From Planctomycetota bacterium (lineage in GTDB: Bacteria > Planctomycetota > Planctomycetia > Gemmatales > Gemmataceae): a stretch of DNA of 64,000 bases. Of this stretch, positions 8,067 through 59,627 are shown piece by piece. The DNA is taken from the NCBI GenBank assembly GCA_016191165.1, contig JACPPF010000169.1, positions 1 to 64,000 of the forward strand. Reading direction: 5' to 3'. Positions within the stretch are counted from its first letter, which is position 1, and each line of letters begins with the position of its first letter. The notes under the pieces are model-generated. The model saw only the letters and a program-made list of their open reading frames with translations. It did not search any database and was not told where the DNA came from. Position numbers and translations under genes: made by a program.

Positions 8067-8080
8067 GGAGAGGTTCCGCC

Positions 8081-30153: not shown

Positions 30154-31257
30154 ATGCGAATCCTCTGCCGTCGCGACGGATTGTTATCCGCCTTCCAACT
30201 GGCGAGTACTGCCATCGCGGGTCATGACCACAAGCCGGTGTTGCAGAACGTGAAGGCAACCGCCGGCATGGACCGATGCACATTGCAGGCGACGAACCTG
30301 GAGCTGGGCATCCGCCTGAACTTCAACAGCACGATCGTCGAAGAACCAGGCGAAGTCCTGCTGCCCGCTGCCCGAACGCTGGCGATCATGCGCGAAGGGG
30401 CTGACGAGGAGTGGGCCGTGGAGACCAGGGACAATACTTGCCACGTCCGGGGCCAATCGAGCGAGTTCGAGTTTTCCACCGAAGAACCGACGCACTTCCC
30501 CGATGTACCGGAGTTTGACGCCGACAAATACCACGAAATCCAGGCCGGCGTACTTCGGGAAATGATCCGTCGAACGCTTTTCGCGGTTGCATCCGAAAGC
30601 AACCGATACGCCATTACCGGTGTGCTCTGGGAACTGGAGGGTAAGTCGGCACGTCTGATCGGCACCGATGGCCGGCGGCTCGCGTTCGCCCAGGGCGCCG
30701 CCATCGCCCATGCCGAGCACAGCGCCAGCGGCCTGACCAGCATCGTCCCGGCCAAGGCAATGCAGCTCCTGAACCGAAACCTGCACAACCCGGACGAAAC
30801 GGTGTGGATCAACTTCAAGGCCAACGAAGCACACTTCAAAACCGAGAATGTCACGGTTTACGCGCGGCTCGTGGAGGGGCGCTTTCCGCGGTATCGCGAC
30901 ATTCTTCCGAAAAAGGCAAACGTCAAGATTCCCTTGATCGTCGGCCCCTTCTTCACCGCCCTCCGCCAGGCCGCCATCATGGCCGATGACGATAACCGCA
31001 AGGTAATTCTCCATTTCGCCAAGCAAAAGCTTACCATGGAGGCGTGCGGCGCCGACACCGGGCGATCCAAAGTCGAGCTACCCATCGACTTCAGTGGCAA
31101 AAGCGCCGAGATCGCGTTCGACCCGAAGTCGCTGATTGACATGCTGAACGTGCTTCCCGCTGACGCTACCATCGTCCTGGAAATGGCCGATGACAAGACC
31201 CCTGCGACGTTCAGATGCGGCGACGATTTTTCATACATTGTCGTGCCACTGGTATGA
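30154..31257 (+). CDS. dnaN: DNA polymerase III beta sliding clamp
   Basis: A 367-residue protein of normal length for the clamp that tethers the replicative polymerase to DNA. The opening MRILCRRDGLLSAFQLAS and the three-domain pattern are canonical: VKATAGMDRCTLQATNLELGI in domain 1, FAVASESNRYAITGVLWEL and LIGTDGRRLAFA in domain 2, and the C-terminal DFSYIVVPLV. AGGAAC precedes the ATG. In most bacteria dnaN lies near dnaA at the origin; no such neighbours exist here. It stands alone between accessory operons, so it is likely an additional clamp copy. The divergent clamp at 13035 is a separate protein. The neighbour to the right is convergent. Confidence 0.9.
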   Translation: MRILCRRDGLLSAFQLASTAIAGHDHKPVLQNVKATAGMDRCTLQATNLELGIRLNFNSTIVEEPGEVLLPAARTLAIMREGADEEWAVETRDNTCHVRGQSSEFEFSTEEPTHFPDVPEFDADKYHEIQAGVLREMIRRTLFAVASESNRYAITGVLWELEGKSARLIGTDGRRLAFAQGAAIAHAEHSASGLTSIVPAKAMQLLNRNLHNPDETVWINFKANEAHFKTENVTVYARLVEGRFPRYRDILPKKANVKIPLIVGPFFTALRQAAIMADDDNRKVILHFAKQKLTMEACGADTGRSKVELPIDFSGKSAEIAFDPKSLIDMLNVLPADATIVLEMADDKTPATFRCGDDFSYIVVPLV

Positions 31258-31300: not shown

Positions 31301-32767
31301 TTATTTCGGAGCTGATGGTAATGACACAAGGACATGTCCTTGTACGGCGAAGCCTCGTTCGCGGAGTCGGGCCTCCCAACCGTCGCGATTCCCGATCATC
31401 CTCGAATCATCGAGAAGACCATTCTCTTCTTCTTGCCGTGTAAGGTCGGCGAAATGCTGAAACGACGCATGATCCGGATGTAAAAACCTTTCCTTACGAT
31501 GGAGAATGGGCGGGTTCTCGCTTCTCGTGTAGTCATAGCATTCCAGCTGCCTAGCCCGCAACGAGAGCTTCACGCTTCGAAAAAGGGCCGGATGCGGATC
31601 GTTCTCGAAGTCGGGGTACACGAGGTAAGACACTTTTCCAGAAAACCGGTGCAGCTTGATGATATTTGCACCCTCTATTTCACCGAGGAAGCTTCGGGCG
31701 CAACCTTCGTAGATGCGAAGAAGAGGTTCGACGTGTTCCAAGGCACTTCGATGAAGGTATAGCGCGTTCGGCAACAGTTTCCCCACCGTCGACCTCTGGC
31801 ACGCTTCGTCGATGGCAGCCGCATCGCCTGCCCTGAATAGCAATAGGTCTGCCTGCGTGCACGCCTTCATGTACGTCCCGAAGAACGCTCGGAAATCGCG
31901 CTGCATGGTCGGCGGATAGCCGGAAAGCTTGGGGCGCTTCCGAAATCGGGCGAGAGCCAAGAAGACGAGAAGATCTTCCGTTCTTCGCCGGCGAATGGTG
32001 TCCCAGGCGTCCTCGCCCGTGACGCGGCGTACAAGAGCAAAGGCGCGCTTGAGCGATCCAAATCGGCTGATGATCTCTGGGCATTGACGAAACTCTTCGG
32101 GATCTGGTAGCCGCCCAAGAAGGGCGAGGGTGTTCATGAACGGATGCAGCACTTCCCGGTGTTCCTCGAATCGCCGTTCTGAAACTCTCTGCCGTGGCAC
32201 GGCTGGGCCACGCCGAACACGGCTTGCGAGAAACTGCTGACGATGGGCGTCGTCTTTGAACAAATAGAAGACGCCAACTGTCGCCGGAATTGCCTCCGTC
32301 TTTAATTCAGCTTCGAGGTACTCCCTGAGTTCAGCTTGCTCAAAAAACTTCTGAAACGTCCCACGGCTCGTCAAGACACCATCGCCGAACTCCGTAAATG
32401 CATTCCCACGGCCCGGAATGCGCACCAAGGTTGAGACGACCAATAGCCGTCGAGCAATTCGCCACGCATGCCGGAGTGTCGAACTTCGCTCGGCGGGGTC
32501 CTCAATGACGTTAAGAACATAGCCAAGATTGACGACATCCGCCTCGGATACAGGCTCGTTTGGACGGAACACGGGGTCCCAGCCTTTGCCTGAAATCCCT
32601 TGAGCACCGAGGAGGTCGATGTCCTCACCGTGGCCACAGCCGAAGTCGAAGAAGGTCACCAACGGACTAAGCAAACCATCCGCAAGAGCACATTTCACCG
32701 GCCGTGAGATGTCGTGGCGACGGATCGCCGTCTTGAACCGGAGAATCGGGGATTGATCGGCATCCAT
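31301..32767 (-). CDS. Phosphorothioation-associated putative methyltransferase
   Basis: A 488-residue protein. Residues about 10-120 form a SAM-binding domain: RFKTAIRRHDISRPVKCAL, then FFDFGCGHGEDIDLL as motif I, GWDPVFRPN, and NLGYVLNVIEDPAER. This block fits the family annotated as DNA phosphorothioation-associated putative methyltransferase. The long C-terminal part is helical and has no clear motif. I chose the ATG at 32767; the frame is open to a TTG at 32836, directly after the upstream stop. It is the final gene of the operon with the second DndD-like ATPase and the DndE-HerA fusion. Its substrate is unknown, possibly DNA, and no target-recognition domain is obvious. Confidence 0.75.
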   Translation of the reverse strand: MDADQSPILRFKTAIRRHDISRPVKCALADGLLSPLVTFFDFGCGHGEDIDLLGAQGISGKGWDPVFRPNEPVSEADVVNLGYVLNVIEDPAERSSTLRHAWRIARRLLVVSTLVRIPGRGNAFTEFGDGVLTSRGTFQKFFEQAELREYLEAELKTEAIPATVGVFYLFKDDAHRQQFLASRVRRGPAVPRQRVSERRFEEHREVLHPFMNTLALLGRLPDPEEFRQCPEIISRFGSLKRAFALVRRVTGEDAWDTIRRRRTEDLLVFLALARFRKRPKLSGYPPTMQRDFRAFFGTYMKACTQADLLLFRAGDAAAIDEACQRSTVGKLLPNALYLHRSALEHVEPLLRIYEGCARSFLGEIEGANIIKLHRFSGKVSYLVYPDFENDPHPALFRSVKLSLRARQLECYDYTRSENPPILHRKERFLHPDHASFQHFADLTRQEEENGLLDDSRMIGNRDGWEARLRERGFAVQGHVLVSLPSAPK

Positions 32768-32839
32768 CGTGTTTCCCAGATGGTCAAGTCCACGCGATCC
32801 CGCTGTCTCACTTGCTCCTGGAGGCGCCCTCGTCAAAGC

Positions 32840-34507
32840 TCAAGTTCGACCTGCCGGGAAGAGTTCAAAGAATGGAACAACGCGAAATTTCTTTATCGGC
32901 TGATCTCGCCCGCCCGAACCGCGACCAAGACCCGACAGCGGTTCCATCTTGCCCAACTCAGTGGCCAATCGTCTTGCTTCCGGAGGGCTGCACCCAAGCA
33001 GCCGCTGCACGGCCTTCGGCTCTGTTTTGCAGGCGAGCATGAACGTGAACTCAAGCTGTTCCGTGTAGTCAAAATCGCTCTGGTCGAAATCATCCGGCGA
33101 TTGGCAGAGCAGAACGACCGCGAAACCCTTGCTGCGCCCTTCACGGATTATCCCCTGAAGGAACCGGTTTTTCTTGCTGAGATAGTATTGGGCCTCATCA
33201 ATGAACAGCAGGCAGCGCACGTGCCGGAAGCCACTTTGCGGGTCCACTGTTGATTCAGGCAGAATGCGCATTTCATGGTACAGCTGTTCGATTAGTGTGA
33301 AAGCGGTGACCTCTTTCAGTCCCCCAAGCTCGTGAATGTCCACAATCCACCGCTGCGTATGGAGCGGCGAGATCGGCGGACTGTTTTCGGCACGCGTCCA
33401 AAACAACTTATAGGCGTTAAGGCGACGAAACAGCTCGATGAGGGAATCTGGTTGCAGGCCCTCGGCCTCGTAAATATCCCGCAAGACGGTAAACACGAAG
33501 CCGAAGTCGGGCGCAGGAATCGGATCTTCTGCCAGCATCTTGTAGCTGGTACGAATGGCCTGCACGAGCCGCCCCTCTTGTTTGGGGCCCAGATTGCGGA
33601 AGAGGTTCGTGTAGACCTCACGCTTCTCCTCCGCGGCCAGCACTACGGCATCCTGCGAATAGTCACGGAGGTGAAACGGTCCAATCGGCAATGTGGTGCT
33701 GGGCAGATTGAATACCTTGGCCCCGACAGTCTCGACGAAGGCCTGGTTGGAAGCAACGTCCCCCTTGGCGAAGTCGATGAAGATCATGCCAGTGGCTGGA
33801 TCGGCCGCGCGCAATGCGGATGCTGCCAACTGCATGGCAAGCTGGGTCTTCCCGCTGCCGCTCATGCCGCTGACGGCGAGATGGCAGTTGCTATGTTTTC
33901 GGGCGTCATTCAGTGTAAGCGTGAAAGGAGCCTCGCCTTCCTTGAACCGGCCGATCGGAACGGTCAGCCCGGGAACATGGCCAGCTAGAGCCGGGATCAC
34001 GTCTCTCGGCTGAGTGCCCTGACCGGTAGCGCCGACAGCGGTGTCAGCCGCCTTGCGGGCGAGTGACACGATGAATTCGACAACGCCTTTTGCCTCGTCT
34101 AGGTCTGTAACAAGGAGGTCCAACCCCCGGTGCCAGTGGGCCAGGATCAGATCAAAGGCTTCTTCATCAGACTGCAGGGCTTTTCCATGGTGTTCCGCCA
34201 GCAGCGCCACGAACCACGGCAGGATGGCCGGGTCACGGCGCGGTTGAGAATCGTGGCGCTGTTGAGCACCGTGCCGTTGCTGAGTCTCGTGTCCATAACG
34301 AAACAGCGTTTCTCCCCGAAGCTCCTTCCCTTTGCGCGCTGCTTCGACCCTGGGGGGAGCTGCCGGCTCACGCAGAGATCTGGCAATCGCCAGTCTGCTG
34401 AGGAGGTCATCCCGCCAACTGGTAGCTTGAGCAAGTCGACTCAGCTTGGCGTTTGCTTCTTCGGTGCTCTTGTAACGTCGCACCAGGAGTTGGCTAGTAA
34501 TACCCAT
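32840..34507 (-). CDS. DndE-like domain fused to HerA/FtsK-type ATPase
   Basis: A 555-residue protein. The first 150 residues resemble DndE: STEEANAKLSRLAQATSW, LLSRLAIARSLREPAAPP and GKELRGETLFRYG align with the DndE encoded at 59250-59627 (LSNEASERLKHLKARTGM, LSRLGFCLSLSDPAIP, FNRYTLLGE), and ILAHWHRGLDLL with AHLNRGVLSLF. A P-loop ATPase follows, with Walker A SGMSGSGKTQLA near 212 and Walker B RCLLFIDEAQYYL near 432, as in HerA/FtsK DNA motors. A low-complexity His/Gln/Arg stretch lies around 80-95. DndE binds DNA, so the fusion could be a DNA translocase recruited to modified or nicked DNA. It sits 37 bases after the DndD-like gene. The start has AAAGGGAAA upstream. Confidence 0.8.
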   Translation of the reverse strand: MGITSQLLVRRYKSTEEANAKLSRLAQATSWRDDLLSRLAIARSLREPAAPPRVEAARKGKELRGETLFRYGHETQQRHGAQQRHDSQPRRDPAILPWFVALLAEHHGKALQSDEEAFDLILAHWHRGLDLLVTDLDEAKGVVEFIVSLARKAADTAVGATGQGTQPRDVIPALAGHVPGLTVPIGRFKEGEAPFTLTLNDARKHSNCHLAVSGMSGSGKTQLAMQLAASALRAADPATGMIFIDFAKGDVASNQAFVETVGAKVFNLPSTTLPIGPFHLRDYSQDAVVLAAEEKREVYTNLFRNLGPKQEGRLVQAIRTSYKMLAEDPIPAPDFGFVFTVLRDIYEAEGLQPDSLIELFRRLNAYKLFWTRAENSPPISPLHTQRWIVDIHELGGLKEVTAFTLIEQLYHEMRILPESTVDPQSGFRHVRCLLFIDEAQYYLSKKNRFLQGIIREGRSKGFAVVLLCQSPDDFDQSDFDYTEQLEFTFMLACKTEPKAVQRLLGCSPPEARRLATELGKMEPLSGLGRGSGGRDQPIKKFRVVPFFELFPAGRT

Positions 34508-34544
34508 GATTTCCCTTTCTCATGATCCTGAGATGCCGCTAAAG

Positions 34545-36587
34545 CTAAAGGATGTCGAAATAACCTTCCTCGATGCTGGTTCGCTCGTTTTCCGTGTCGA
34601 AAACCAAGTGTAACGTTTTATCCACGCAGCCGCGCACCTTGTTGAAGTACTGATGATCCAGTTCGGTGTCGGTCGAAAGCACCAAGACTTGAGGCCCGGC
34701 GGCGGGCAGATACTGCGTTACGATGTTGGTCCGGTGCTTGCTATCAAGGCGGCCGAGCGGAGTATCGATCACCACGGGCACCTCACGGCGCGAGGTCTTG
34801 GCCAAGCCCCACAGTAGGGCCAGGGCAAAAATTTCCTTTTCGCCGGCCGAGAACTCATCGATCGGAATGGAGTTACCCTGACGATCCAGAAGTCGTGGGT
34901 CATATGTCTGTTCATCCAGGTCAATGTCTTGGACAACGTCCTCCTTGCGTGCGAGGCGACGGTACATAGCCCTGAGGTTTTTACGCAGCTCATCCCGTTT
35001 TCGGGGGCGGAGTTCTTCCTGATACCGCTGGACCGCGCGACGCACATTGCGAGCCAGGGCAGCCAGTTCGCCGGACTTTCCGCTGCGGGCGAGATCGTCC
35101 TCCTTGCGCTGCCTCTGACGTCGCTTCTCCCCCAGTTCATGTTCTTTGTCGTCGGTCTGCCGGCGCTTCATGTCAAAAGCCTCTTCGGCCTGACCGCGTT
35201 CCCGACTCAGCCGGCTTTTTGTTTCGATCAGCTTTTCAATCTCTTCGCCCTCACCTACTTGTTGGAGGGTCGCCTTCAAATGATTTGCCCGTCTCTCAGC
35301 CGTTTCGAGGCGGTCCAGAAGGACACGCAAGTCAGGTGCCTGTCGACGAACGACTTCCGAGCACTTCGCCCGCACTTGGCTCACTTCCTCGGGGCTCAAA
35401 CAGTCGTGCCTGAGTTCCTTTGCCGCGCCTTCGGGAGGAGGATAGAAGAGGTTGTTCCATCGGTCTCGAAGCATGGTGGAGTAGAAGTCACGTTGATTCG
35501 GAACCAGCGGTGGGTCTGACTGTGGCGCTGCTGGGCTGAAAATCTCGGCCACAAGCCGTTCGAGTTGAGGCTGCACGCGGCGGCGCCCTTCGTCCCAGGT
35601 TCGAAAGAGTTCCTCACCGTGCAACTGTTGGACAAGCGAGTGAATTGGCTGCATCGGTAGCGCGAGCACGACAAATTCCTCGATCATTCCCTCGATTTGC
35701 TTTCGCAGTCCTTCGCTTTCCGCTTGAAGCTTTTCCTGTTCAGCTCGCAACTCCGCTGGCCGCTTCCCCTCTGGTCCGAGCATGCGATCAAGTCGCGCGT
35801 CGATCTTGCTGAGCTGTTCGTGGATTCCCGCGATCCGTTCCTCGAGGTCTTGTCGTTCGTGACTCAGTTCCTCAATCTGGCTTTCAAGCTGTTGCTCTTC
35901 AGCGGCTAGTCTTGTCAGCTCTACTTCTTGGTCGCTCCGTTTCTTGCTTTCCCGGCGATACCGGTTGTGCAATTCGTCGAGGTCGGTTTCGAGCTGCTGA
36001 AGCACCTGAAAGCCGAGCAACATATCGATGCCGTTGCGCACTTCCTCGTTGGGGTTGGCCTCGGCGATTCGTCGGATCTCTTCTCCATCGAACATGAAAA
36101 ACCGTCCGATATGGGGAGGGATCGTGTGCTTCAAATAATCTCGCTGTTCCTGGTCCGGATCCTGATCGAACTTAAGGGGCTCGCCGTCAAAGAGAATGTC
36201 AAGTCTTTCGTCCTTCATGCGCAGGGCATCATCGAAAGCCCACTCCCTGCGAACCTCGATCGTATGGCCTTTATCCAGCAAGTGAAGAGTTACAGCCGCT
36301 TGTCGCTTGCCCTCCCGATACGCGGCCCGATTGAGAAGGCTTGCCAGGATACGGTCGCGCTGGGACTTGCCTTCTCCAGCCCTCGCTAGTCCTTTGATGT
36401 ACAGAAAGGCGTCGTCATATCCGAACAGAGCAAACGTGATTGCATTGAGTAACGTGGTCTTGCCAGCGCCGTTCAGGCCGCCGATGACAACAAGATTCTT
36501 GCCGCTGCCTGGCACCACACTCAGGTCTGCTTGCTGGTGACCGTAGTAGCAGCCAAAATCTTCAAGTTCGACGCGTTGGATGATCAT
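34545..36587 (-). CDS. Second DndD-like SMC-type ATPase
   Basis: A 680-residue ABC/SMC ATPase related to the DndD encoded at 57203-59263. Walker A is GGLNGAGKTTLLNA (about 36-49). A long coiled coil spans about 200-480. The signature motif is FSAGEKEIFALALLWGLA near 577 and Walker B is VPVVIDTPLGRLDSKH near 605, followed by VLVLSTDTELDHQYF. These C-terminal blocks are nearly the same as in the canonical DndD (SAGEKQIFAISMLWALAQ, PIVIDTPLGRLDSDH). DndD is the DNA-nicking ATPase of phosphorothioation. This copy has its own partner set (DndC-tail protein and DndE-HerA) and no sulfur enzyme. AGGAGAAC precedes the ATG. It should be an active ATPase. Confidence 0.85.
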   Translation of the reverse strand: MIIQRVELEDFGCYYGHQQADLSVVPGSGKNLVVIGGLNGAGKTTLLNAITFALFGYDDAFLYIKGLARAGEGKSQRDRILASLLNRAAYREGKRQAAVTLHLLDKGHTIEVRREWAFDDALRMKDERLDILFDGEPLKFDQDPDQEQRDYLKHTIPPHIGRFFMFDGEEIRRIAEANPNEEVRNGIDMLLGFQVLQQLETDLDELHNRYRRESKKRSDQEVELTRLAAEEQQLESQIEELSHERQDLEERIAGIHEQLSKIDARLDRMLGPEGKRPAELRAEQEKLQAESEGLRKQIEGMIEEFVVLALPMQPIHSLVQQLHGEELFRTWDEGRRRVQPQLERLVAEIFSPAAPQSDPPLVPNQRDFYSTMLRDRWNNLFYPPPEGAAKELRHDCLSPEEVSQVRAKCSEVVRRQAPDLRVLLDRLETAERRANHLKATLQQVGEGEEIEKLIETKSRLSRERGQAEEAFDMKRRQTDDKEHELGEKRRQRQRKEDDLARSGKSGELAALARNVRRAVQRYQEELRPRKRDELRKNLRAMYRRLARKEDVVQDIDLDEQTYDPRLLDRQGNSIPIDEFSAGEKEIFALALLWGLAKTSRREVPVVIDTPLGRLDSKHRTNIVTQYLPAAGPQVLVLSTDTELDHQYFNKVRGCVDKTLHLVFDTENERTSIEEGYFDIL

Positions 36588-36630
36588 TGATTGTTCTCCT
36601 GCCAGGCCATCGATGTCCGCGTGATGGGCG

Positions 36631-36852
36631 TCACTTGTCCTCCTTGTCGTTTGAAGTGACGAACTCCCTGAACAGGGAATCCAGCTGGGTCCAGATCAAG
36701 TGGCGGCGCCCCATCCCGAACACCTTCGTCTCTTCCTCAATTAGCGCCGCCACGAGACGCGGCGGAACGCCAATTTCGTCACACACGGATTCCAATACCG
36801 CGCGTTCATCGTCCGACAGGGATGGACTGCTCACCGTATCATCTGTTGACAT
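36631..36852 (-). CDS. Small stand-alone DndC C-terminal-domain-like protein
   Basis: A 73-residue protein. Residues 13-67 (DDERAVLESVCDEIGVPPRL, then VAALIEEETKVFGMGRR, IWTQLDSLFREF) align along their length with the last part of DndC at 55759-57201 (AKDQVILKDVCKKHGTPAEL, VARLIDVERQTQGMSRR, IYDRIEALFRQDW). The spacing is equal with almost no gaps, so it is a detached copy of the DndC tail. It contains no PP-loop. It is encoded directly upstream of the second DndD-like gene, the same order as dndC-dndD. The simplest reading is that it is the docking domain for DndD. GAGGGAGAG precedes the ATG. Confidence 0.75.
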   Translation of the reverse strand: MSTDDTVSSPSLSDDERAVLESVCDEIGVPPRLVAALIEEETKVFGMGRRHLIWTQLDSLFREFVTSNDKEDK

Positions 36853-36882
36853 TTGACTCTCCCTCGCATGTTGCGGTTCATG

Positions 36883-37533
36883 TTACGGAACAAGGCGCCT
36901 TTCCAGGGCGGATTGGAATTCACTCTTGAATGCGGGCCAAATCGAATGCCGGCGAAGATAATCTAGTTCGCTGGGTAGGTCATCAGCCTGAGCCAGCGTC
37001 CGAAGGTTATCCGCTGTCGCGGTTTCAGGTGGAAGCCGCCGAACGAGTTCGTTGACGAGGTCATCGATCGAATGCAGAATCTTACGCAGATACCAAAGGA
37101 CGAGGGCAATGCACTTCGCGATGGCATTCTTGCGCCGGAAGCATGGCAGCGACAGCGATCGGGCGGTAGCGACCAGGCTCGCCACAAGGATCTCATGTAA
37201 TTCCCGGATCACCGTGCTCGCATCCGTGTCCGGCGGGTCATGTTCGCCAATGGATGAGGGAGCAGCTGCCAATTGACGACGGCGACGGCGAATTTTGTTT
37301 CTGGTGATCGTGCAAAGCCAACCGGCAAACGAGTCGCCAGGGCGGTCGAGCCGCAAATTCGTAATGCCTTTAATCGTGGCCAAGAAAACCTGCTGGGCCA
37401 CGTCATCCGCGTCAGCCGGCTGCAGCCCTGCATGCCGGCACCAATCAAGGATGGCCGGACCATATTGCTCAACCACCTGCTGCCATGCGTCTTCCGGATC
37501 TGTCGATCCGCGCACGATATCTGTCACCAGCAT
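36883..37533 (-). CDS. Sigma-70 region 2-like protein without recognisable region 4
   Basis: A 216-residue protein. The first 90 residues look like the core of an ECF sigma factor: WQQVVEQYGPAILDWCRHAG, DADDVAQQVFLATIKGI, then DSFAGWLCTITRNKIRRRRR. After this the expected region 4 helix-turn-helix is missing; the remainder is a different helical segment with PCFRRKNAIAKCIALVLWY in the middle. It may be an adapted regulator that no longer acts as a standard sigma factor, or a divergent one. AGGAG precedes the ATG. The gap to the gene upstream is 18 bases and to the DndC-tail gene 30 bases, so it belongs to the six-gene operon. Confidence 0.6.
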   Translation of the reverse strand: MLVTDIVRGSTDPEDAWQQVVEQYGPAILDWCRHAGLQPADADDVAQQVFLATIKGITNLRLDRPGDSFAGWLCTITRNKIRRRRRQLAAAPSSIGEHDPPDTDASTVIRELHEILVASLVATARSLSLPCFRRKNAIAKCIALVLWYLRKILHSIDDLVNELVRRLPPETATADNLRTLAQADDLPSELDYLRRHSIWPAFKSEFQSALERRLVP

Positions 37534-37551
37534 GCCTGCGTCTCCTGGATG

Positions 37552-37989
37552 TCATCGCATACGTGCCATCTCCCACCAACTATCTGCTGCGGCATCCCAC
37601 TCGGGTGAGATCGCGGCGCCGCCAATGATGATGGCGATCTCGGCAAGGAATCGTTGCGGATCTTGGCATCGGAACGCCAGCCGCAAAACAGAAGGATCCA
37701 GGTCGCGGGGCTGCAACCGAATCTTTCTGCGCATGTCATCGGCTTCCGCCTGCCCTCGGCAGATGTCGTACAAGATCAACAAGCCCACTCCCACGAGACC
37801 CCGACGGAGCCGATCCGGCGCCATCGCACCGGCCAACCGCCTAATTGCTCGGGCGACGACAGGATCTTTGCGGCGAAGTTCAGCCAGCCTCCGCGCGTAG
37901 ATTCCTCGTTCGTCTGGCCACTCGTTGTGGCCAAATCGCTCAAACCATGACGCACGGGTGGCGTGGAGCACCTCTTGGTGCACGCGCAT
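37552..37989 (-). CDS. Protein of unknown function, first gene of the six-gene operon
   Basis: A 145-residue protein starting at ATG 37989 behind a strong ribosome site (GGAGGGAGG). The composition is basic in the first half (LAELRRKDPVVARAIRRLAG), with a hydrophobic segment GLVGVGLLILYDI and an Ile-rich stretch AEIAIIIGGAAI. No motif is recognised. The longer frame to 38025 adds 12 residues without support. It is followed closely by the sigma-like gene and may regulate it or act with it, in the manner of an anti-sigma pair; that is only a positional inference. Confidence 0.55.
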   Translation of the reverse strand: MRVHQEVLHATRASWFERFGHNEWPDERGIYARRLAELRRKDPVVARAIRRLAGAMAPDRLRRGLVGVGLLILYDICRGQAEADDMRRKIRLQPRDLDPSVLRLAFRCQDPQRFLAEIAIIIGGAAISPEWDAAADSWWEMARMR

Positions 37990-38044
37990 GATTTTCCTCC
38001 CTCCAGCCAACGAATCCGCGCGCAACGACAGCGCAAACTCGCGT

Positions 38045-38098
38045 TCACGGCAAAAAGTCGAATGTTGCTACGGCAGCCACTACATGGATATCCTCCTT
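38045..38098 (-). promoter_or_regulatory. Strong ribosome site before a start-stop or 11-codon leader frame
   Basis: On the minus strand AAGGAGGA (38098-38091) lies five bases before ATG-TAG (38085-38080), a start codon immediately followed by a stop. A GTG overlapping that stop opens an 11-codon frame ending at 38045. It lies in the leader of the six-gene operon. It could be an attenuator-like leader or the remnant of a lost gene. Confidence 0.3.
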
Positions 38099-38110
38099 TT
38101 CAAAATCGAC

Positions 38111-38130
38111 CTATAATCCTCCTATTATAG
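38111..38130. promoter_or_regulatory. Palindromic promoter region of the six-gene operon
   Basis: CTATAAT and ATTATAG form a perfect 7-bp inverted repeat with a six-base centre. Each arm contains TATAAT, reading outward on opposite strands. The minus-strand copy (38129-38124) is a plausible -10 for the operon starting at 37989; the -35 is weak. The region further up to 38395 contains no gene that I can support. Confidence 0.4.
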
Positions 38131-41394: not shown

Positions 41395-41576
41395 GCTTCA
41401 ATGGGTCCACGGTCTGATAACCGTGGTTATGTTCGTACCAATGTGCAAACGGCGTTTTCCGATGGGGCTTCAATGGGTCCACGGTCTGATAACCGTGGTT
41501 ATGTGTGTGCAAGGAGGCCAAGAAAGAACCAATCTTCGAGCTTCAATGGGTCCACGGTCTGATAACCGTGGTTATG
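41395..41576 (-). CRISPR. Type I-G CRISPR array, three repeats and two spacers
   Basis: Three identical 37-base repeats lie at 41395-41431, 41467-41503 and 41540-41576 with spacers of 35 and 36 bases. Read on the minus strand, in the direction of the cas genes, each repeat contains the inverted arms ACCACGGTTAT and ACCGTGG and ends in ATTGAAGC, close to the ATTGAAAC end common in type I repeats. On the plus strand each repeat begins GCTTCAATGGG and ends CCGTGGTTATG. All three are intact, so the array looks short rather than decayed. The ECF sigma gene ends it at the other side. Confidence 0.95.
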
Positions 41577-41836
41577 GCTCGCTGTCGTAAAACACGAAAC
41601 GCATGGGGTTTCTGTGCCCTCAAGCGAGAGGATAGTGACATTGGTATGTCAATCGAATTGCGAGTCAGTGGGGTCACACTATAAACTCCTTGTGTATGCG
41701 GACTTGTAATCCGCGAGAGGCTTCCGCTGAGCGAAATCAAAGATAACCTCCAATTGTCAAAGAACTTTTGGCTTCAAAGAAGCTACACGGCGAGTTCACC
41801 ACGTCTAAGCTCGCGGGCGCAATGGCAACAAGAATC
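41577..41836 (-). promoter_or_regulatory. Probable CRISPR leader
   Basis: The 260 bases between the end of csb2 and the first repeat contain no gene and are more AT-rich than the cas genes. In minus-strand orientation this is the leader side of the array, where the array promoter and new-spacer insertion would be expected. No exact boxes were assigned. Confidence 0.45.
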
Positions 41837-44005: not shown

Positions 44006-45351
44006 TCTTGGTCCTCGGCTTCTTCGGCGCCAGCCGTTTTCTTCTGTACCTTCTTCCACGCGTCGTTCCACTTCTTCAGGGCTTTCTTGATGACATCATG
44101 GGCGGGGTTGTCAACCTCTTCACCCTCGTTGTTATCCTTCTTCACCGGGTTCTTGTCCAATAGAGCCTGTTGGTCCTCTTCGGGCCATTCACCCGTGATG
44201 ACCAGCGCCTGGAACGTCTTCCTGTTGTTTCCTTTGCCTTCAATGAGCTGCTTCACCTCGGCTCGATCTGTGAAGCCTTCCAGAACAAAGTTCTCGGCGG
44301 AAAGCCCCTCGGTCAATGCCTCCTTGCCGACGATGTCCAATGCATATGTAACGACCACAACCCGCCGCCGGGCCCATTCGTCACCTTCGTTGTGACGGGG
44401 GAAACACCTGTCTCGGGCAGCAGAGAACGCATTCAGGATGTCTGGCGAGCATGGCCATTTGCCATTGCCGTCGCCAAGGTCCTGAGACTGGCCTTCTGGG
44501 CCGTCAAGCGTAACCTTCATGCCCAGGACTTGGAACTCGCAAGCCGTCCTCAGCCGAAGATGCTGGTGAAGGAACCGGTCGATCTTGTACAAAGCCCACG
44601 CCTGCAGGAACCGACTCTTATGGTCGTCAAGGCCGTACCCTTTCAGCGTTGACAGGTGGAGGATGAACGATGCGGTGATGCTCGACGATGTGAACTCTTG
44701 CCGGGGATAGGGGATATTGTCCTTCGCTGTCACCTCGCCCCGATACACGCCGCCGGAGTTTGCCTGGTTGGGCGAGCATGCTTCGATGTATGCCGAGACG
44801 AGCCGAGGTAGTCGAATGCGACCATCGATCTCTTCCAGGAAAACGCCGTGCAACACGCAGCCAGGATCGCGATCAAAGATGGTTGGGACCATGCGCCAAA
44901 TGTGAACTGGGCGCTGCTTGTTGGACCCGAGTGCTGTCTTCAGTTCTTCGCGATACACAGCACCGTCTCGCTTGGCGGCCAGAACGTACGGGGAAGCCAA
45001 GCGATGCGGCTCGCGCACGGACGATGTGAGGAATGTGTTGCCATTATGGCCGTCAAGGACGCGCACATACGGGACACCCAGGCAATCAGGGTTATAGTCC
45101 TCGCCTTGAAGGCAGACGTCCTCCAAGCGGTTGGCCATCGACTGAACGGATTCGACGAGCAGCATATCCACGGTTTCCGTAACCGGGGGCTGGTCACCGT
45201 TCGGAGCGGCGCGAACTCCTTTGTAGAGTGCCGGGCCGAGGTCCGGGAAGCCCGTCGGCTGGAAGCGGCCACCGCCGCCGGTGGCGACCTTGAGTTCGGC
45301 TTCGACGAGCAGCCGCGAGGCGGTATCGAGCGGGGTGAAATCAATCGGCAT
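44002..45351 (-). CDS. csb1: Type I-G Cas7-like protein Csb1
   Basis: A 449-residue backbone subunit that should polymerise along the crRNA. Family features include LLVESVQSMANRLEDVCL near 85-102, the block QANSGGVYRGEVTAKDNIPY near 195-215 with the following SSSITASFILHLSTLKGYG, and an acidic-basic C-terminal tail rich in Lys and Glu. The gene begins 14 bases after csx17 ends and overlaps csb2 (ATGA). Its size is at the upper end for Csb1 because of that charged tail of about 60 residues. Confidence 0.85.
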   Translation of the reverse strand: MPIDFTPLDTASRLLVEAELKVATGGGGRFQPTGFPDLGPALYKGVRAAPNGDQPPVTETVDMLLVESVQSMANRLEDVCLQGEDYNPDCLGVPYVRVLDGHNGNTFLTSSVREPHRLASPYVLAAKRDGAVYREELKTALGSNKQRPVHIWRMVPTIFDRDPGCVLHGVFLEEIDGRIRLPRLVSAYIEACSPNQANSGGVYRGEVTAKDNIPYPRQEFTSSSITASFILHLSTLKGYGLDDHKSRFLQAWALYKIDRFLHQHLRLRTACEFQVLGMKVTLDGPEGQSQDLGDGNGKWPCSPDILNAFSAARDRCFPRHNEGDEWARRRVVVVTYALDIVGKEALTEGLSAENFVLEGFTDRAEVKQLIEGKGNNRKTFQALVITGEWPEEDQQALLDKNPVKKDNNEGEEVDNPAHDVIKKALKKWNDAWKKVQKKTAGAEEAEDQE

Positions 45352-45365
45352 GGGCAGTCCTCCAG

Positions 45366-50794: not shown

Positions 50795-51078
50795 CAGGTC
50801 ACAATCACCACATCCTTAGCATCGTGCTTCTCCACCGGCCGGCCCAAGGCCTCAATTCCTTCAGCGCAGCGGTTGCACAGCGGGATGAACAGAACCTGGT
50901 CTTCCTGAAGGTTGATAATGTCATACAGCCGGCTCTTGAGTCGCACAAGGTCCGTTGTAGACAGGCGGCACAGGAACACCGAATACTGGCGACGAAAGCC
51001 GAAGTCTTCGCAAGTGCGGGCGACCTTGCGAAGACGCTTCGGATGGCAGATGTCGTAGGCCACCAAGTAGGTGTCCAT
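50794..51078 (-). CDS. cas2: Cas2 adaptation protein
   Basis: A 94-residue protein, normal size for Cas2. It begins MDTYLVAYDICHPKRLRKVA, with the ferredoxin-like first strand ending in the conserved Asp, followed by FRRQYSVFLCRLS and VLFIPLCNRC. The ATG at 51078 gives the standard start; the frame runs further to 51153 without family support. The cas3 start overlaps its stop by one base. With the Cas4-Cas1 fusion it forms the spacer-acquisition complex. Confidence 0.93.
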   Translation of the reverse strand: MDTYLVAYDICHPKRLRKVARTCEDFGFRRQYSVFLCRLSTTDLVRLKSRLYDIINLQEDQVLFIPLCNRCAEGIEALGRPVEKHDAKDVVIVT

Positions 51079-51112
51079 TGCGTTCGCCGGGAATCGTCGC
51101 GGCGCCTCCAGG

Positions 51113-52849: not shown

Positions 52850-52890
52850 TTGAGGTTCCTTTCGATGATGAGGTCGAATCCAGATCGTGT

Positions 52891-54354: not shown

Positions 54355-55617
54355 ATGGATCAAGTTTTCCGACGGGATCGAGTTTCAGGGACGCCAGGGC
54401 ATGACTTCAAGAATGGAATCGAAAGCAACCGTTTTCTGCGCTACTGGTTGACCGAAAAAATAGATGACGCCAAGCTGTTCACGCGGGTATTGCGGTCAAG
54501 GAGGGCCGAGCTGGTGGATAATGCGCACACTTTTTCTGCAATTCGTGGGGTTCAAGGTGGCCGCGACTATTACGTTGCCATGGTCCCGCTGAAAGTCGTC
54601 CCAAAGCTCTTCCTTTTCGACGACGCCGAGCTGCCGCCTGATCTACGCGCGCAACGAACGCTGAACCGCGCGCGTGTGCCGGACATTGCCCGTTACTTGA
54701 TCGACAATCCGAAGAACTACACGTTCTCTTCGTTGACGGCGTCGGTGGACGGTCGAGTTCATTTCGAGCCCTCCGGGGACGCCGGGTATGCCGGGAGCAT
54801 CGGCCGTTTACTGGTGCCCATGACCGCGAGATTCCTCATCAACGATGGCCAGCACCGCCGGGCGGCCATTGAGGAGGCGCTGAGGGAACGGCCCGAACTG
54901 GGAGAAGAAACCCTTTCGGTCATTTTTTTCATCGACGCCGGCCTGAAACGCAGCCAGCAGATGTTTGCTGACCTGAACCGGCATGTAGTACGGCCGCCGC
55001 AATCGCTCGGTGTTCTGTATGACCACCGCGATCCGTTTGCCCAACTCGTCTGCCGACTCGTTGGTCGCGTGAGCGTCTTCAAGAATCTGACCGAGATGGA
55101 GAAGACTTCGGTCCCCACCCAGGCGAACAAGCTCTTTTCCTTGAGCGGGGTGCATCAAGCGACCCGAACACTCCTCGCGCTGGGTAAGAAGCGGCGGGTC
55201 ACGCAAGAGCAGGAAGACCTTGCCTGGGATTACTGGCAGGAAGTCGGACGGTGTATCCCTGACTGGCAGCTGGCGGCAGAGAAAAAAGTCAGCTGCGTTG
55301 AGTTGCGGCGGGATTATGTTCATGCCCACGGTGTAACATTGCTCGCCTTCGGGTTCCTCGGATCTTCCCTTCTGGCCAAAGAGCCTACGACCTGGAAAGG
55401 GACGCTCAAGCCACTTCGGAAGCTGGATTGGGCACGCTCCAATGCCGAGACCTGGGAGGGACGAGCCCTCGTGGGAGGCCGCATCAGCAAGGCACACATC
55501 AACGTCTTGTTGACCACGAACCTGCTGAAACAGTGCGTGGGCGTTCCTCTCTCCGACACGGAACGCCAGGTCGAAACGGATTTTGTGCACCGGCGGACTG
55601 CTCGAAACGCAGGTTAA
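54355..55617 (+). CDS. dndB: DndB, regulator of DNA phosphorothioation
   Basis: A 420-residue protein with the DGQHR motif that defines the DndB group: FLINDGQHRRAAIEEAL near 160-176, followed by VIFFIDAGLKRSQQMFADLN. DndB is not needed for sulfur transfer but modulates the modification and represses dnd expression in studied systems. It is encoded upstream of dndC in the same direction, 141 bases apart. The N-terminal 20 residues before HDFKNGIESNRFLRYW are poorly conserved, so the start could lie slightly downstream. Confidence 0.88.
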   Translation: MDQVFRRDRVSGTPGHDFKNGIESNRFLRYWLTEKIDDAKLFTRVLRSRRAELVDNAHTFSAIRGVQGGRDYYVAMVPLKVVPKLFLFDDAELPPDLRAQRTLNRARVPDIARYLIDNPKNYTFSSLTASVDGRVHFEPSGDAGYAGSIGRLLVPMTARFLINDGQHRRAAIEEALRERPELGEETLSVIFFIDAGLKRSQQMFADLNRHVVRPPQSLGVLYDHRDPFAQLVCRLVGRVSVFKNLTEMEKTSVPTQANKLFSLSGVHQATRTLLALGKKRRVTQEQEDLAWDYWQEVGRCIPDWQLAAEKKVSCVELRRDYVHAHGVTLLAFGFLGSSLLAKEPTTWKGTLKPLRKLDWARSNAETWEGRALVGGRISKAHINVLLTTNLLKQCVGVPLSDTERQVETDFVHRRTARNAG

Positions 55618-55758
55618 TCCACCCGAGATATCGAAGGAAACGCCGGCGGGCCGTGGCATCGCTTTTGTCATCGCGCCAATCCAGTTGTAGAATCAGCCTT
55701 GTTGGGCCGGTGCCCGAAGGGGACCGGCGTCGGTGCCACGTACTCGAGGATAGGGACA

Positions 55759-57201
55759 ATGGCAGTGTCATTGCCGCTAGTTGAGCGAAAGGAGCCTTCC
55801 GCCTTCGAGCGAAAGTCCGTTAAGGCTTTTCAAGAGGAGGTGCAAGGGATCTACCTTGCCGACAATCGTCCGTGGGTTGTGGGCTATAGCGGCGGGAAGG
55901 ACTCGACCGCGACGCTGCAGCTCGTCTGGTATGCGGTGGCTGGACTTCCTCCCGAGCAGCGAAAAAAGCCGGTCTACGTGATCGCCTCTGATACCTTCGT
56001 CGAGACCCCGGTCATTGTTGACTACATCGACGACAACCTCGAAGCGATCAACCGCGCCGCCAAGGAACAGGGCATGCCCTTCGAGGCGCACAAGGTAACG
56101 CCCGAGATCAAGGATACCTTCTGGGTGAACCTGATCGGCCGAGGCTACCCGCCACCTTCGACCAAGTTCCGATGGTGCACCGACCGCATGAAGATCCAGC
56201 CGGCGAACAAGTTCATCCTTGATCGCGTGGCCGAGTTCGGCGAGGTCATCATGGTCCTTGGCTCTCGCCAGGGCGAGAGCGCCAGTCGCGACCAGGTGCT
56301 CAAGGCCCATGCGATCAAAGGTTCCCGCCTTCGACGCCACAGCACACTCGCGAACGCGTTCGTCCTGGCACCCATTGAAGAGTTCACGACCGATGACGTT
56401 TGGACTTACATCCTTCAAGTCAAGTGTCCCTGGGGCACCAACAACAACCGCCTCGTGACCATGTACCGCAACGCGGGGGCCGGCGAATGCCCCCTTGTGG
56501 TGGACACGAGCACGCCATCGTGCGGCAACAGCCGGTTCGGCTGCTGGGTCTGCACCGTCGTCGAACAAGACCACTCCATGGAATCGATGGTGGACAGCGG
56601 CGAAGAGTGGATGGAGGCGCTGCTCGATTTCCGCAACCTGCTCAAGTCCCACCACGATCCGGAAGTGAAACGCAAAGTGCGCCGACTGAAGCGCCGCGAT
56701 GGCAAGATCAGGCTCAAGAAAGACGGCACGCCGTCCCCTGGTCCGTACGAGCTTGAAGAACGCAAGAAACTGCTGCGAACCCTTCTCGAAGTTCAACAGC
56801 AGGTAAGGCGAGAAGGTCCCGATCCTGACAACCGGCTCATCTCGGCCGGGGAACTGCATGAAATCCGCAGCATCTGGCGAACCGAGGAGTCGGATTGGGA
56901 AGATTCTGTTCCCGTCATCTACCGGCAGGTCGTGGGAGAGGATCTGGATTGGGTGCATGACGACGTAACCGCTCTCACCGCGAAGGACCAAGTAATCCTG
57001 AAGGACGTTTGCAAGAAGCACGGCACGCCCGCCGAACTGGTTGCCAGGCTGATCGACGTGGAACGCCAGACCCAAGGCATGAGCCGGCGTGCGGGTATCT
57101 ACGACCGTATTGAAGCGCTATTCCGCCAGGACTGGCCGGACGAGGCAGCCAGAGAGGCTTTTCGCTTGGGGCCGGACAAAACAGGGGAGGAAGACAACTG
57201 A
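55759..57201 (+). CDS. dndC: DndC, sulfurtransferase-type PP-loop enzyme of DNA phosphorothioation
   Basis: A 480-residue enzyme of the PAPS-reductase fold. The ATP-pyrophosphatase PP-loop is GYSGGKDSTATLQ (about 43-55). Cysteines able to hold the Fe-S cluster appear in FRWCTDRMK near 141 and in ECPLV, PSCGNSRFGCWVC near 244-264. It should activate DNA phosphate with ATP and accept sulfur supplied by a cysteine desulfurase. The C-terminal domain (about 410-465) is the part duplicated as a separate protein at 36631. The ATG at 55759 follows AGGATAGGGAC; the frame is open to 55699. dndD starts one base after its stop. No dndA gene is in the window. Confidence 0.95.
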   Translation: MAVSLPLVERKEPSAFERKSVKAFQEEVQGIYLADNRPWVVGYSGGKDSTATLQLVWYAVAGLPPEQRKKPVYVIASDTFVETPVIVDYIDDNLEAINRAAKEQGMPFEAHKVTPEIKDTFWVNLIGRGYPPPSTKFRWCTDRMKIQPANKFILDRVAEFGEVIMVLGSRQGESASRDQVLKAHAIKGSRLRRHSTLANAFVLAPIEEFTTDDVWTYILQVKCPWGTNNNRLVTMYRNAGAGECPLVVDTSTPSCGNSRFGCWVCTVVEQDHSMESMVDSGEEWMEALLDFRNLLKSHHDPEVKRKVRRLKRRDGKIRLKKDGTPSPGPYELEERKKLLRTLLEVQQQVRREGPDPDNRLISAGELHEIRSIWRTEESDWEDSVPVIYRQVVGEDLDWVHDDVTALTAKDQVILKDVCKKHGTPAELVARLIDVERQTQGMSRRAGIYDRIEALFRQDWPDEAAREAFRLGPDKTGEEDN

Positions 57202-57202: not shown

Positions 57203-59263
57203 ATGTTACTCCACCGCCTCGTTGTCCAGGACTTCGGGCTCTTTCGTGGCCGCAATGAATTAGATTTGGCCCCGCGCATCCGCTACCGACAGCGGCGTCC
57301 GGTCGTTCTGATCGGCGGGAAAAATGGCTCCGGAAAGACAACATTGCTCGATGCCGTCCGTCTCTGCCTTTACGGTCCTCTGGCCCTGGGACCGAGGGTG
57401 AGCGTTCGGGAATACGAAGCCTACCTCAACGACCGCATCCACCGGGCCAATGGGCGACTCATTTCGCCGGAAGGGGCCTCGGTGGGGGTGGAATTCCTTT
57501 ATGCCCAGGCCGGCGTCCAACACACCTATTCGGTTGAACGCCGCTGGGAGCGGCGCGGCAGCGGCAGCGTCCGGACGGAAACAACAGTTCTCTGCGATGG
57601 GAAGCCTCTCGGCGAGCTTGAGCGCACGCAGGCGGATGAATTCCTGCGCGACCTAATCCCGCCTGGCGTGTCGCAGTTGTTTTTCTTCGACGGGGAGAAA
57701 ATCCAGCAGCTCGCAGAAACGGCCCATGACCAGACCGCACTGGCGGAAGCCGTGCGTGGCCTCACCGGGCTTGAATTGCTGGAGCGTCTTCAGGCGGACC
57801 TGCGCACCTACGCCGCGAAAAACCGTGACGCAGCCGAGGAGCAACCGCTACGACGGCAACAAGTGGCGCTCGTGGAGGAGCGGCGGCAGCTCGACGAGCG
57901 ACTCCGAGTTGCCACCCGAGATGTCGACGAAGCTCAGAGTGCGGAAGATGGATGTAGGCAAGAGATCGAACGCGAGAAACAGCGCTTGGCGCGCATGGGC
58001 GGGAGTTTTGCAGCAAAGCGCGAATCCTACGAAGCAGAACGGGCCCACCTGAAACAGGCCATCATTGAAGTTGAAGCCGAACTCCGTGAATCGTGCGAGG
58101 GGCTACTTCCATTCGTGCTTTGCTCCGCCCAGTGTCGCTCGCTCGGCCAACAGTTAGCGGAGGAAGACAAGGTTCAACAGTGGGTGGCGCACGAGGCGGC
58201 AATCAAGGGCCGGCTTGCCGACCTGAAGCAAGGTGCCAAGGACGCGCTTTTTCCGGCCAACGATTCACTGGATGTTTCTGCACGCGTCCGCAAGACGCTC
58301 GTTCAACGTGTTGGTCTTTTACTAGACCGTTTGGCGGAGCCTCCAGAGGATCTGCCGACTGTGACCACACTCCACAAGGTGTCGGAAGATGACCGCCAGC
58401 GGTTGCTCAGCGCGATCGACCGGATCTCGCACGACATGCCAAAACTGCTGAGCAAACTTCAGAAACGACTCGAACGGTCTACGCGCCGGCTGCAGGAGGT
58501 GGAGGTGGCGCTGGAGAAGATCCCCGCCGACGAGATTATTCAGCCGGTCGTTGAGCGTTTGCAGACACTTTATCAAGAACTGGGCAGCGCCGAGGCAGCA
58601 ACCAAACGAGCCGACCTGAGCAAGCGCGAGGTCGAGCTGCACCTTGAGGACCTGGGACGCCGCGAGCGCAAACTCGCCGAACGGCTCGCAGACCTCGGCC
58701 GAATGGCGGATCGGCGTGTGCAGCTGGGCAAGGTCCAGATCGTGGTGGACGAGTTCACCGAAGCGCTAACCACAGCCAAGATTCAAGAACTTCGTGACGC
58801 GGTCGTTCGCTGTTTTGGGCAGCTGTGGCGGAAGGGCGACCTGATCCGGCGAATCGAAATCGATCCCAAGACTTTCCAGGTCACGCTCTTTGACGCGCAT
58901 GACCGGCCGGCGCCGAAGGATCAATTGTCGGCTGGCGAGAAACAAATCTTCGCCATTTCGATGCTTTGGGCGCTCGCGCAGCTCTCCGGGCGGCCCTTGC
59001 CGATCGTTATCGACACGCCTTTGGGCAGGCTTGACAGCGACCACCGCGGCTACCTTGTGGACCGGTATTTTCCCAACGCCAGCCACCAGGTAATCGTGCT
59101 CTCCACGGACACCGAAATCGACCAGGCGTCCTTCAAGGCGCTGAGTCCTTCGGTGAGCCACGCCTACCACCTGCGTTATGATGAGCTGGAGCAATGCTGC
59201 ATGGTGGAGCCGGGTTATTTTTGGGGCAGAACCGAAACGGAGACGCTCGATGCAGCTAAATAA
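57203..59263 (+). CDS. dndD: DndD, SMC-type ATPase of DNA phosphorothioation
   Basis: A 686-residue ABC/SMC-like ATPase thought to nick and remodel DNA for sulfur insertion. Walker A is GGKNGSGKTTLLDAV near 36-50; a coiled coil spans about 215-540; the signature SAGEKQIFAISMLWALA lies near 575, followed by Walker B PIVIDTPLGRLDSDH and VIVLSTDTEIDQA. The start is one base after the dndC stop, and the end overlaps dndE by 14 bases, so the three are one translation unit. A paralogue lies at 34545-36587. The protein has normal length. Confidence 0.93.
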   Translation: MLLHRLVVQDFGLFRGRNELDLAPRIRYRQRRPVVLIGGKNGSGKTTLLDAVRLCLYGPLALGPRVSVREYEAYLNDRIHRANGRLISPEGASVGVEFLYAQAGVQHTYSVERRWERRGSGSVRTETTVLCDGKPLGELERTQADEFLRDLIPPGVSQLFFFDGEKIQQLAETAHDQTALAEAVRGLTGLELLERLQADLRTYAAKNRDAAEEQPLRRQQVALVEERRQLDERLRVATRDVDEAQSAEDGCRQEIEREKQRLARMGGSFAAKRESYEAERAHLKQAIIEVEAELRESCEGLLPFVLCSAQCRSLGQQLAEEDKVQQWVAHEAAIKGRLADLKQGAKDALFPANDSLDVSARVRKTLVQRVGLLLDRLAEPPEDLPTVTTLHKVSEDDRQRLLSAIDRISHDMPKLLSKLQKRLERSTRRLQEVEVALEKIPADEIIQPVVERLQTLYQELGSAEAATKRADLSKREVELHLEDLGRRERKLAERLADLGRMADRRVQLGKVQIVVDEFTEALTTAKIQELRDAVVRCFGQLWRKGDLIRRIEIDPKTFQVTLFDAHDRPAPKDQLSAGEKQIFAISMLWALAQLSGRPLPIVIDTPLGRLDSDHRGYLVDRYFPNASHQVIVLSTDTEIDQASFKALSPSVSHAYHLRYDELEQCCMVEPGYFWGRTETETLDAAK

Positions 59264-59627
59264 AATCCGTCTCTCGAACGAGGCGTCTGAGCGCCTCAAA
59301 CACCTGAAGGCTCGGACGGGCATGACGCCCAACATCCTCAGCCGGCTCGGGTTTTGCCTTTCTCTGTCGGACCCGGCGATACCGAACTCGGAGAGCTACC
59401 CGGAAGAAGACCGTGAGTTCAACCGCTACACGCTGCTCGGCGAGTGGGACGACCTGTTCGTGGCGCTCTTGCGTCAACGCCTGGCCCAAGACAACCTCTC
59501 CGAGGATCTCCTGGAAGCCCAGTTCCGCGCGCATCTGAACAGGGGCGTGCTGTCCCTATTCGGGCTCGTCAAGAGTATGTCTGACCTGGCCGTCCTCTGC
59601 GAACGAGCCGCAAGCCGACATGAATAG
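59250..59627 (+). CDS. dndE: DndE, DNA-binding protein of phosphorothioation
   Basis: A 125-residue protein of typical DndE size. It begins MQLNKIRLSNEASERLKHLK and contains LSRLGFCLSLSDPAIP and AHLNRGVLSLFGLVKS, the latter near the C-terminus. DndE is a small DNA-binding protein that prefers nicked DNA in studied systems. The gene overlaps dndD by 14 bases; the frame is open upstream but ATG 59250 matches the family. No further dnd gene follows. Its paralogous domain is fused to a HerA motor at 32840-34507. Confidence 0.92.
   Translation: MQLNKIRLSNEASERLKHLKARTGMTPNILSRLGFCLSLSDPAIPNSESYPEEDREFNRYTLLGEWDDLFVALLRQRLAQDNLSEDLLEAQFRAHLNRGVLSLFGLVKSMSDLAVLCERAASRHE

What the first reader, a model, noticed from the sequence alone, without database searches (positions are those of the whole stretch)
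31301..38130. Six-gene operon built from DndC-tail, DndD and DndE paralogues without sulfur chemistry
Seen: six co-directional minus-strand genes with gaps of 18 to about 73 bases encode, in order, an unknown protein, a sigma-like protein, a DndC C-terminal-domain-like protein, a DndD-like ATPase, a DndE domain fused to a HerA motor, and a phosphorothioation-associated methyltransferase-like protein. The canonical dndBCDE lies in the same window, so the paralogy is visible directly. Known: Dnd systems are often paired with DptFGH-type restriction modules; none is present here. Inference: this is a partner or effector module that recognises or acts on phosphorothioate DNA, or an independent defence system derived from dnd.
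Basis: partly seen in the sequence, partly recalled or inferred. Interest (0 to 1): 0.92.

Follow-up and report, generated by a model that had tools for sequence, protein, structure and literature searches.

The report
Dnd-like DNA motor module lacking DndC
A planctomycete operon keeps the DNA-scanning and DNA-pumping parts of a bacterial DNA-sulfur-tagging system but lacks the sulfur-adding enzyme and carries a methyltransferase instead; its core was already known, but this sulfur-free arrangement is a new variant that can be tested.

Summary
The six ORFs lie as described; all six look coding. Profile searches confirm DndD (TIGR03185, 382 bits, cut-off 246), a DndE domain fused to a DndH-type HerA motor, a stand-alone DndC C-terminal segment (Sp-DndD) and TIGR04096 (584 bits, cut-off 150). 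The sigma-like protein has only region 2; the first gene is an orphan.

Only three genes form a recurring module. In 25 other loci the DndE-HerA gene lies in a cluster with a DndC sulfurtransferase, mostly as DndC-SP-DndD-DndE/HerA. The window operon is that PT-modification operon minus DndC; the only DndC found in this genome is in the canonical dndBCDE 18 kb away. No other locus has all six genes, or TIGR04096 next to DndE-HerA. The DndD/DndE-HerA pair was already reported (Rakesh 2024). Not previously reported in the papers I could search: DndC-free versions (here; a single-contig acidobacterium without any DndC, coupled to a type I methylase; probably a third), and the assignment of SP to the segment with which DndC docks on DndD. 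TIGR04096 accompanies both Dnd and Ssp systems.

Best reading: an SP-DndD-DndE/HerA scanning and translocating complex whose writer was replaced, working with PT made by dndBCDE. New variant of a known kind.

The parts
31301..32836 (-). PT-associated putative methyltransferase (TIGR04096); class I Rossmann domain about residues 28-200 with motif I DFGCGHGE, no [DNS]PP[YFW] or PCQ/PCN DNA-methylase motif; helical middle and conserved C-terminal domain of unknown function
32840..34507 (-). DndE domain (N-terminal ~150 residues) fused to a HerA/FtsK motor of the DndH C-domain type; Walker A GMSGSGKT and Walker B LFIDEA intact
34545..36587 (-). DndD-like coiled-coil ABC ATPase (D2); Walker A, SAGE signature and Walker B intact; no CxC zinc hook
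36631..36852 (-). SP: small protein like the C-terminal DndD-docking segment of DndC (Pfam Sp-DndD)
   Evidence: docking segment from PMC12193691
36883..37533 (-). sigma-70 region 2-like protein without region 4; not part of the recurring module
37552..38025 (-). U1: orphan protein, no family match, no relative in 101 genomes of the order; coding by codon usage
54355..55617 (+). canonical DndB (in trans)
55699..57201 (+). canonical full-length DndC with its own C-terminal segment; the only DndC found in the genome (in trans)
57203..59263 (+). canonical DndD (in trans); a lineage apart from D2
59250..59627 (+). canonical stand-alone DndE (in trans)

Best explanation
The operon is a DndC-free derivative of a dndC-SP-dndD-dndE/herA phosphorothioation operon. 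Shown: SP resembles the C-terminal segment of DndC, D2 is a DndD, EH is DndE joined to a DndH-type translocase, their ATPase motifs are intact, and MT belongs to a family found beside both PT machineries. Inferred mechanism: SP sits on the head of D2 where DndC would dock, which stabilises the D2-EH complex without a sulfurtransferase; D2-EH encircles and scans duplex DNA, and the HerA ring moves along it or pumps it; MT is the remaining chemistry of the operon and acts on, or in response to, the PT marks that dndBCDE, 18 kb away, puts on self DNA. The net role would be a PT-linked accessory defence module beside the PT writer where DndFGH is missing. How it stops an invader (blocking replication, pumping, methylation, or recruiting a nuclease from elsewhere) is not shown; no nuclease is recognised in the operon.
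For: Domain identities. 25 other DndE-HerA loci have DndC in the cluster, and 18 have SP as a separate ORF directly before DndD. Own genome: one DndC only, and no DndC remnant in the operon or the rest of the contig apart from SP itself. DndC-free relatives exist: G742 (single contig) with type I-like methylase - S subunit - SP - 220-aa protein - DndD - DndE/HerA, and G423; neither genome has any DndC match. The window EH groups with exactly these plus acidobacterial EHs (100/99). SP corresponds in position to DndC residues 433-482 that bind the DndD head, and mutations there break binding (PMC12193691; strain B7A DndC was not aligned here); DndD-DndE without DndC precipitates within an hour (PMC4611135). 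MT lies next to Dnd genes (L032, L035, L038, L039, L153, L155) or Ssp genes (L130, L159, L030, L031, L148, L149, L152, L154).
Against: No locus elsewhere has EH next to MT, so this pairing rests on one genome. G742 and G423 show that a DndC-free core need not depend on PT. The assembly is a 95%-complete draft, so a second DndC could be missing. All relatives are at or below about 35-40% identity, so selection on the operon could not be measured. The catalytic role of TIGR04096 is untested anywhere I could find.
Confidence: 0.45

Rival explanations
1. Second PT writer with borrowed chemistry: SP-D2-EH uses the canonical DndC in trans to write PT at a second motif or by a processive, motor-driven route.
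For: The family normally carries DndC; DndC is present once in the genome with intact SGGKD and cysteines; a cysteine desulfurase lies on the same contig at about 76.35-77.49 kb; MT is PT-linked.
Against: Canonical DndC already has its own fused docking segment, so SP would compete with it; D2 and canonical DndD are separate lineages; DndC-free relatives exist in genomes without any DndC.
Confidence: 0.22
2. Independent, methylation-based defence system: the DndD/DndE-HerA core has switched from sulfur to methyl chemistry and does not depend on PT, as suggested for some DndDE cores in PMC10853773.
For: G742 couples the same core to an N6-methylase and S subunit and has no DndC; the window operon carries an MTase as its last gene; published precedent for CxC systems with cytosine methylases.
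Against: TIGR04096 lacks [DNS]PP[YFW] and PCQ/PCN motifs and resembles small-molecule and tRNA methylases; most MT loci with readable flanks sit beside PT genes.
Confidence: 0.2
3. Decaying remnant: a dndC-SP-dndD-dndE/herA operon that lost dndC and is kept only by chance, with MT, U1 and the sigma-like gene as accidental neighbours.
For: The exact gene set is unique to this genome; no relative of EH in the six same-genus genomes searched; U1 is an orphan; broken relatives occur elsewhere (L046, L051).
Against: All open frames intact with coding-type codon usage, tight spacing and intact ATPase and SAM motifs; SP, useless without a partner, is kept.
Confidence: 0.13

Closest known systems
DndE-HerA (clade-3 HerA/FtsK) next to a DndD-related ABC ATPase in Dnd PT-modification systems (Rakesh, Aravind and Krishnan 2024, PMC10853773)
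   Same: HerA/FtsK domain of DndH kinship fused to DndE, adjacent DndD-type ATPase
   Different: Here there is no DndC in the operon; a TIGR04096 methyltransferase follows; SP is kept as a stand-alone DndC tail
Canonical dndBCDE phosphorothioation system
   Same: DndD, DndE and the DndC docking segment are homologous; a full canonical set lies in the same window
   Different: No PP-loop sulfurtransferase in the operon; DndE carries a DNA motor; D2 and DndD are separate lineages
PbeABCD (PMC6459918; CxC ABC ATPase systems)
   Same: Small protein, DndD-like ATPase and DndE-like protein in a row; second module beside a PT writer
   Different: D2 has no CxC hook; no PbeA SF2 helicase/nuclease; DndE is fused to HerA
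DndFGH restriction module
   Same: The motor of EH is closest in structure to the DndH C-domain (7es4, Z 40.8)
   Different: No DndF or DndG and none of the nuclease or target-recognition parts of DndH
TIGR04096 DNA phosphorothioation-associated putative methyltransferase
   Same: Full-length member, 584 bits
   Different: Elsewhere placed with canonical dndBCDE or sspABCD; here in a DndE-HerA operon

Membership tests
DndCDE phosphorothioation writer | DndC PP-loop sulfurtransferase in the operon | tested here: not met
   None in the operon; the only one in the genome is at 55699-57201
DndCDE phosphorothioation writer | DndD ABC ATPase | tested here: met
   TIGR03185 382 bits, cut-off 246, full length
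DndCDE phosphorothioation writer | DndE DNA-binding protein | tested here: met
   As a domain: hhalign 98.7%, E 2e-16; profile to 7x4e 2e-10. The window protein alone scores PF08870 22.6 bits, just under the cut-off of 25
DndE-HerA/DndD pair (clade 3 of PMC10853773) | HerA fused to DndE in one polypeptide, next to a DndD-type ATPase | tested here: met
   the clade-3 label itself was not tested by a tree with that paper's data
DndE-HerA/DndD pair (clade 3 of PMC10853773) | located in a PT-modification gene set | tested here: not met
   No dndC in the operon; dndBCDE is 18 kb away with a CRISPR-Cas locus between
PbeABCD | CxC-type ABC ATPase | tested here: not met
   D2 cysteines 13, 396, 409, 654 form no CxC or CxxC; two control PbeC proteins have CIC or CMLC near residue 340
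PbeABCD | PbeA, HKD nuclease fused to SF2 helicase | tested here: not met
   No such protein among the six genes
PbeABCD | PbeB small protein | tested here: inconclusive
   SP matches PADLOC PbeB at 1.8e-5 but DndC tails better; alignment with two PbeB proteins is weak
DndFGH | DndF, DndG and multidomain DndH | tested here: not met
   Only a DndH-type motor domain; none in the genes examined on the contig
TIGR04096 | score above the curated cut-off | tested here: met
   584 bits against 150
DNA base methyltransferase (N6/N4/C5) | catalytic [DNS]PP[YFW] or PCQ/PCN motif | tested here: not met
   Neither motif in MT; fold search ranks small-molecule and tRNA methylases first
ECF sigma factor | regions 2 and 4 | tested here: not met
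   Region 2 at 1.6e-12; no region 4 match

The most novel reading that the evidence does not exclude
SP-DndD-DndE/motor is a general DNA-scanning chassis in which the DndC docking segment has become a stand-alone adaptor, so that the chemistry can be exchanged: sulfur (DndC), base methylation (G742) or, here, a TIGR04096 methyltransferase that acts on phosphorothioated DNA itself, possibly on its sulfur. This would be a PT-reading rather than PT-writing Dnd complex.
Probability: 0.13. Interest if true: 0.85.

Novelty: new variant of a known kind. Interest (0 to 1): 0.5.

Why it matters
DndD and DndE have been studied as parts of a sulfur writer. Complexes that keep DndD, a motorised DndE and the DndC docking segment but drop the sulfurtransferase would separate the scanning function from the chemistry and make it testable on its own. 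They also give TIGR04096, a PT-linked family without known function that spans both Dnd and Ssp systems, a concrete partner set, and suggest what may stand in for DndFGH in genomes that have PT but no recognised restriction module.

Tried and rejected
Pbe membership was rejected (no CxC, no PbeA). A DndFGH derivative was rejected beyond the motor domain. Six-gene conservation was rejected. A hidden or broken DndC near the operon was looked for with six DndC queries over the contig without the canonical dnd genes: only SP itself matched. DndE in L083 turned out to be fused to a RuvB-like ATPase, not HerA, so L083 was left out of the HerA counts. The viral scan with the diverse EH alignment failed; with A1 it gave one more standard DndC-containing locus, L135. 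The HerA part fills the EH fold-search list, so the DndE part was tested by profiles instead. The C-terminal part of MT gave no fold assignment because the MTase domain fills the list; this does not show a new fold. The 2020 ABC ATPase paper (gkaa726) is not held, and the MADS paper was not found. DndD and EH trees contain long branches; the placement of the window EH is robust only at the level of the six-member group.

Full report
What is there. Six minus-strand ORFs at 38025-31301 were confirmed. Each is the best-scoring coding frame by codon usage trained on nine other window genes, with Shine-Dalgarno-like sequence before the sigma-like, SP, D2 and EH genes by eye. The methyltransferase most likely starts at the ATG at 32767 rather than at TTG 32836, because the family alignment begins near residue 31.

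What the proteins are. MT is TIGR04096 (584 bits), D2 is DndD (TIGR03185, 382 bits), EH has a DndE N-terminus and a HerA C-terminus, SP matches Pfam Sp-DndD and the end of DndC, the sigma-like protein has sigma-70 region 2 only, and U1 matches nothing. The weaker likenesses were tested by profiles. The EH N-terminus against canonical DndE: 98.7%, E 1.9e-16, and solved DndE 7x4e at 2e-10. SP alignment against fused DndC tails: 97.9%, E 4.4e-13. The AlphaFold2 model of EH (mean pLDDT 83) has the DndH C-domain 7es4 as its best PDB match (Z 40.8, 356 residues, rmsd 2.3), well above VirB4 (28.9) and HerA (24.1).

The recurring module. A scan of 84,980 species genomes with an EH alignment returned 29 loci. 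Together with loci from plasmids, viral contigs and genome searches, 25 DndE-HerA loci have a DndC sulfurtransferase in the cluster; 18 have a separate 65-93-residue SP ORF directly before DndD. The usual order is DndC (about 385 residues, without its C-terminal segment), SP, DndD, DndE-HerA; KSB1 and some acidobacterial loci have full-length DndC instead. So SP is the DndC C-terminal segment as a separate gene. In E. coli B7A, DndC residues 433-482 are predicted to bind the DndD head and point mutations there abolish binding (PMC12193691), and DndD-DndE without DndC precipitates (PMC4611135). That SP caps or adapts the DndC site on DndD is my inference from these facts; the B7A sequence was not aligned here.

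What is unusual here. The operon has no DndC, and the genome has one DndC only, in the canonical dndBCDE. No DndC remnant other than SP lies on the contig outside dndBCDE. A cysteine desulfurase lies further along the contig (about 76.35-77.49 kb). MT follows EH only here. U1 has no relative in 101 genomes of the order, and neither U1 nor the sigma-like gene recurs with the module (a distant generic sigma hit in L051 lies outside the cluster). The six-gene unit is therefore not conserved; three genes are.

DndC-free relatives. In the phylogeny the window EH groups (100/99) with G423, G742 and three acidobacterial proteins, apart from the large DndC-SP-DndD-EH group; D2 and the canonical DndD of the same window fall apart. 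G742, a single-contig genome of the Acidobacteriota sample, carries a type I-like N6-methylase, an S subunit, SP (PF20306, 52 bits), a 220-residue protein, DndD (389 bits) and DndE-HerA, and no DndC match in the genome. G423 has DndD-DndE/HerA on a 3-kb contig and no DndC match in a 99%-complete genome. So DndC-free forms occur more than once; in the two whose neighbours are readable, the accompanying methylases differ. PMC10853773 had noted DndDE cores without PT genes and suggested other modifications.

What MT says. TIGR04096 genes were found beside Dnd genes in six loci and beside Ssp genes in eight, several others standing alone. Ssp and Dnd share the product (PT) but not the DndD/DndE machinery, which ties MT to PT rather than to DndDE. 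Its Rossmann domain resembles small-molecule and tRNA methylases (Z 11.8-14.3) and lacks the DNA-methylase motifs searched. Its substrate is unknown.

Reading. The most likely mechanism is a PT-linked accessory module: SP-capped D2-EH scans and moves along DNA, and MT does chemistry on or near PT-marked DNA supplied by dndBCDE. The rivals are a second writer that borrows DndC, an independent methyl-based system as in G742, and a remnant. Computation cannot separate these; the steps listed can.

Novelty. The DndD plus DndE-HerA pair, Sp-DndD and TIGR04096 are each known (PMC10853773, Pfam, NCBIfam). New in what I could search: the DndC-free SP-DndD-DndE/HerA arrangement with TIGR04096, a DndC-free genome with a type I-like methylase, the mapping of SP to the DndD-docking segment of DndC, and TIGR04096 spanning Dnd and Ssp. 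Subscription literature was not searchable, so prior mention cannot be excluded.

Noticed in passing
L083 (G280:C405) 1792-3225, 713-6661: DndE fused to a RuvB-like ATPase (PF08870 and RuvB_C both over cut-off) in the order desulfurase - SP - DndD - DndE-RuvB - DndC: a second kind of motor captured by DndE.
   Followed up: partly
L143 (G742:C1:2346000-2365900) 2281-10788: Type I-like N6-methylase, S subunit, SP, 220-residue protein (weak Mrr_N match), DndD and DndE-HerA in a genome with no DndC match.
   Followed up: partly
L141 5691-10743 and L142: Phosphorothioated-DNA-binding HNH restriction enzyme (NF045808 match, below its cut-off) beside DndE-HerA; in L141 it sits where DndD would be, after DndC.
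   Followed up: partly
L130, L159, L149, L154, L031, L148, L152, L030: TIGR04096 lies beside sspABCD genes, so the family spans both phosphorothioation machineries; long forms (L129, L159, L008, L040) repeat the C-terminal domain at the N-terminus.
   Followed up: partly
L131, L132, L133: Viral contigs encode only the MTase domain of TIGR04096 (46% identity to residues 31-218), directly after an 800-residue ORF in L133; possibly a phage counter-measure or own modification.
   Followed up: no
window 41395-52900: Type I-G CRISPR-Cas locus (Csb2, Csb1, Csx17, Cas3) with three 38-nt repeats at 41395-41577; the 595-aa ORF at 51113-52900 reads like a Cas4-Cas1 fusion (by eye).
   Followed up: partly
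window 30154-31257: DNA polymerase III beta clamp gene convergent with the operon, 43 bases from the end of MT; whether it is the only clamp gene was not tested.
   Followed up: no
window contig G000:C157 76350-77489: Cysteine desulfurase (38% to the DndA of L083) about 17 kb beyond dndBCDE, a likely DndA.
   Followed up: partly
L073 6482-14065: Phyllobacterium locus with DndC followed by what looks like two DndD plus DndE-fusion pairs in tandem.
   Followed up: no
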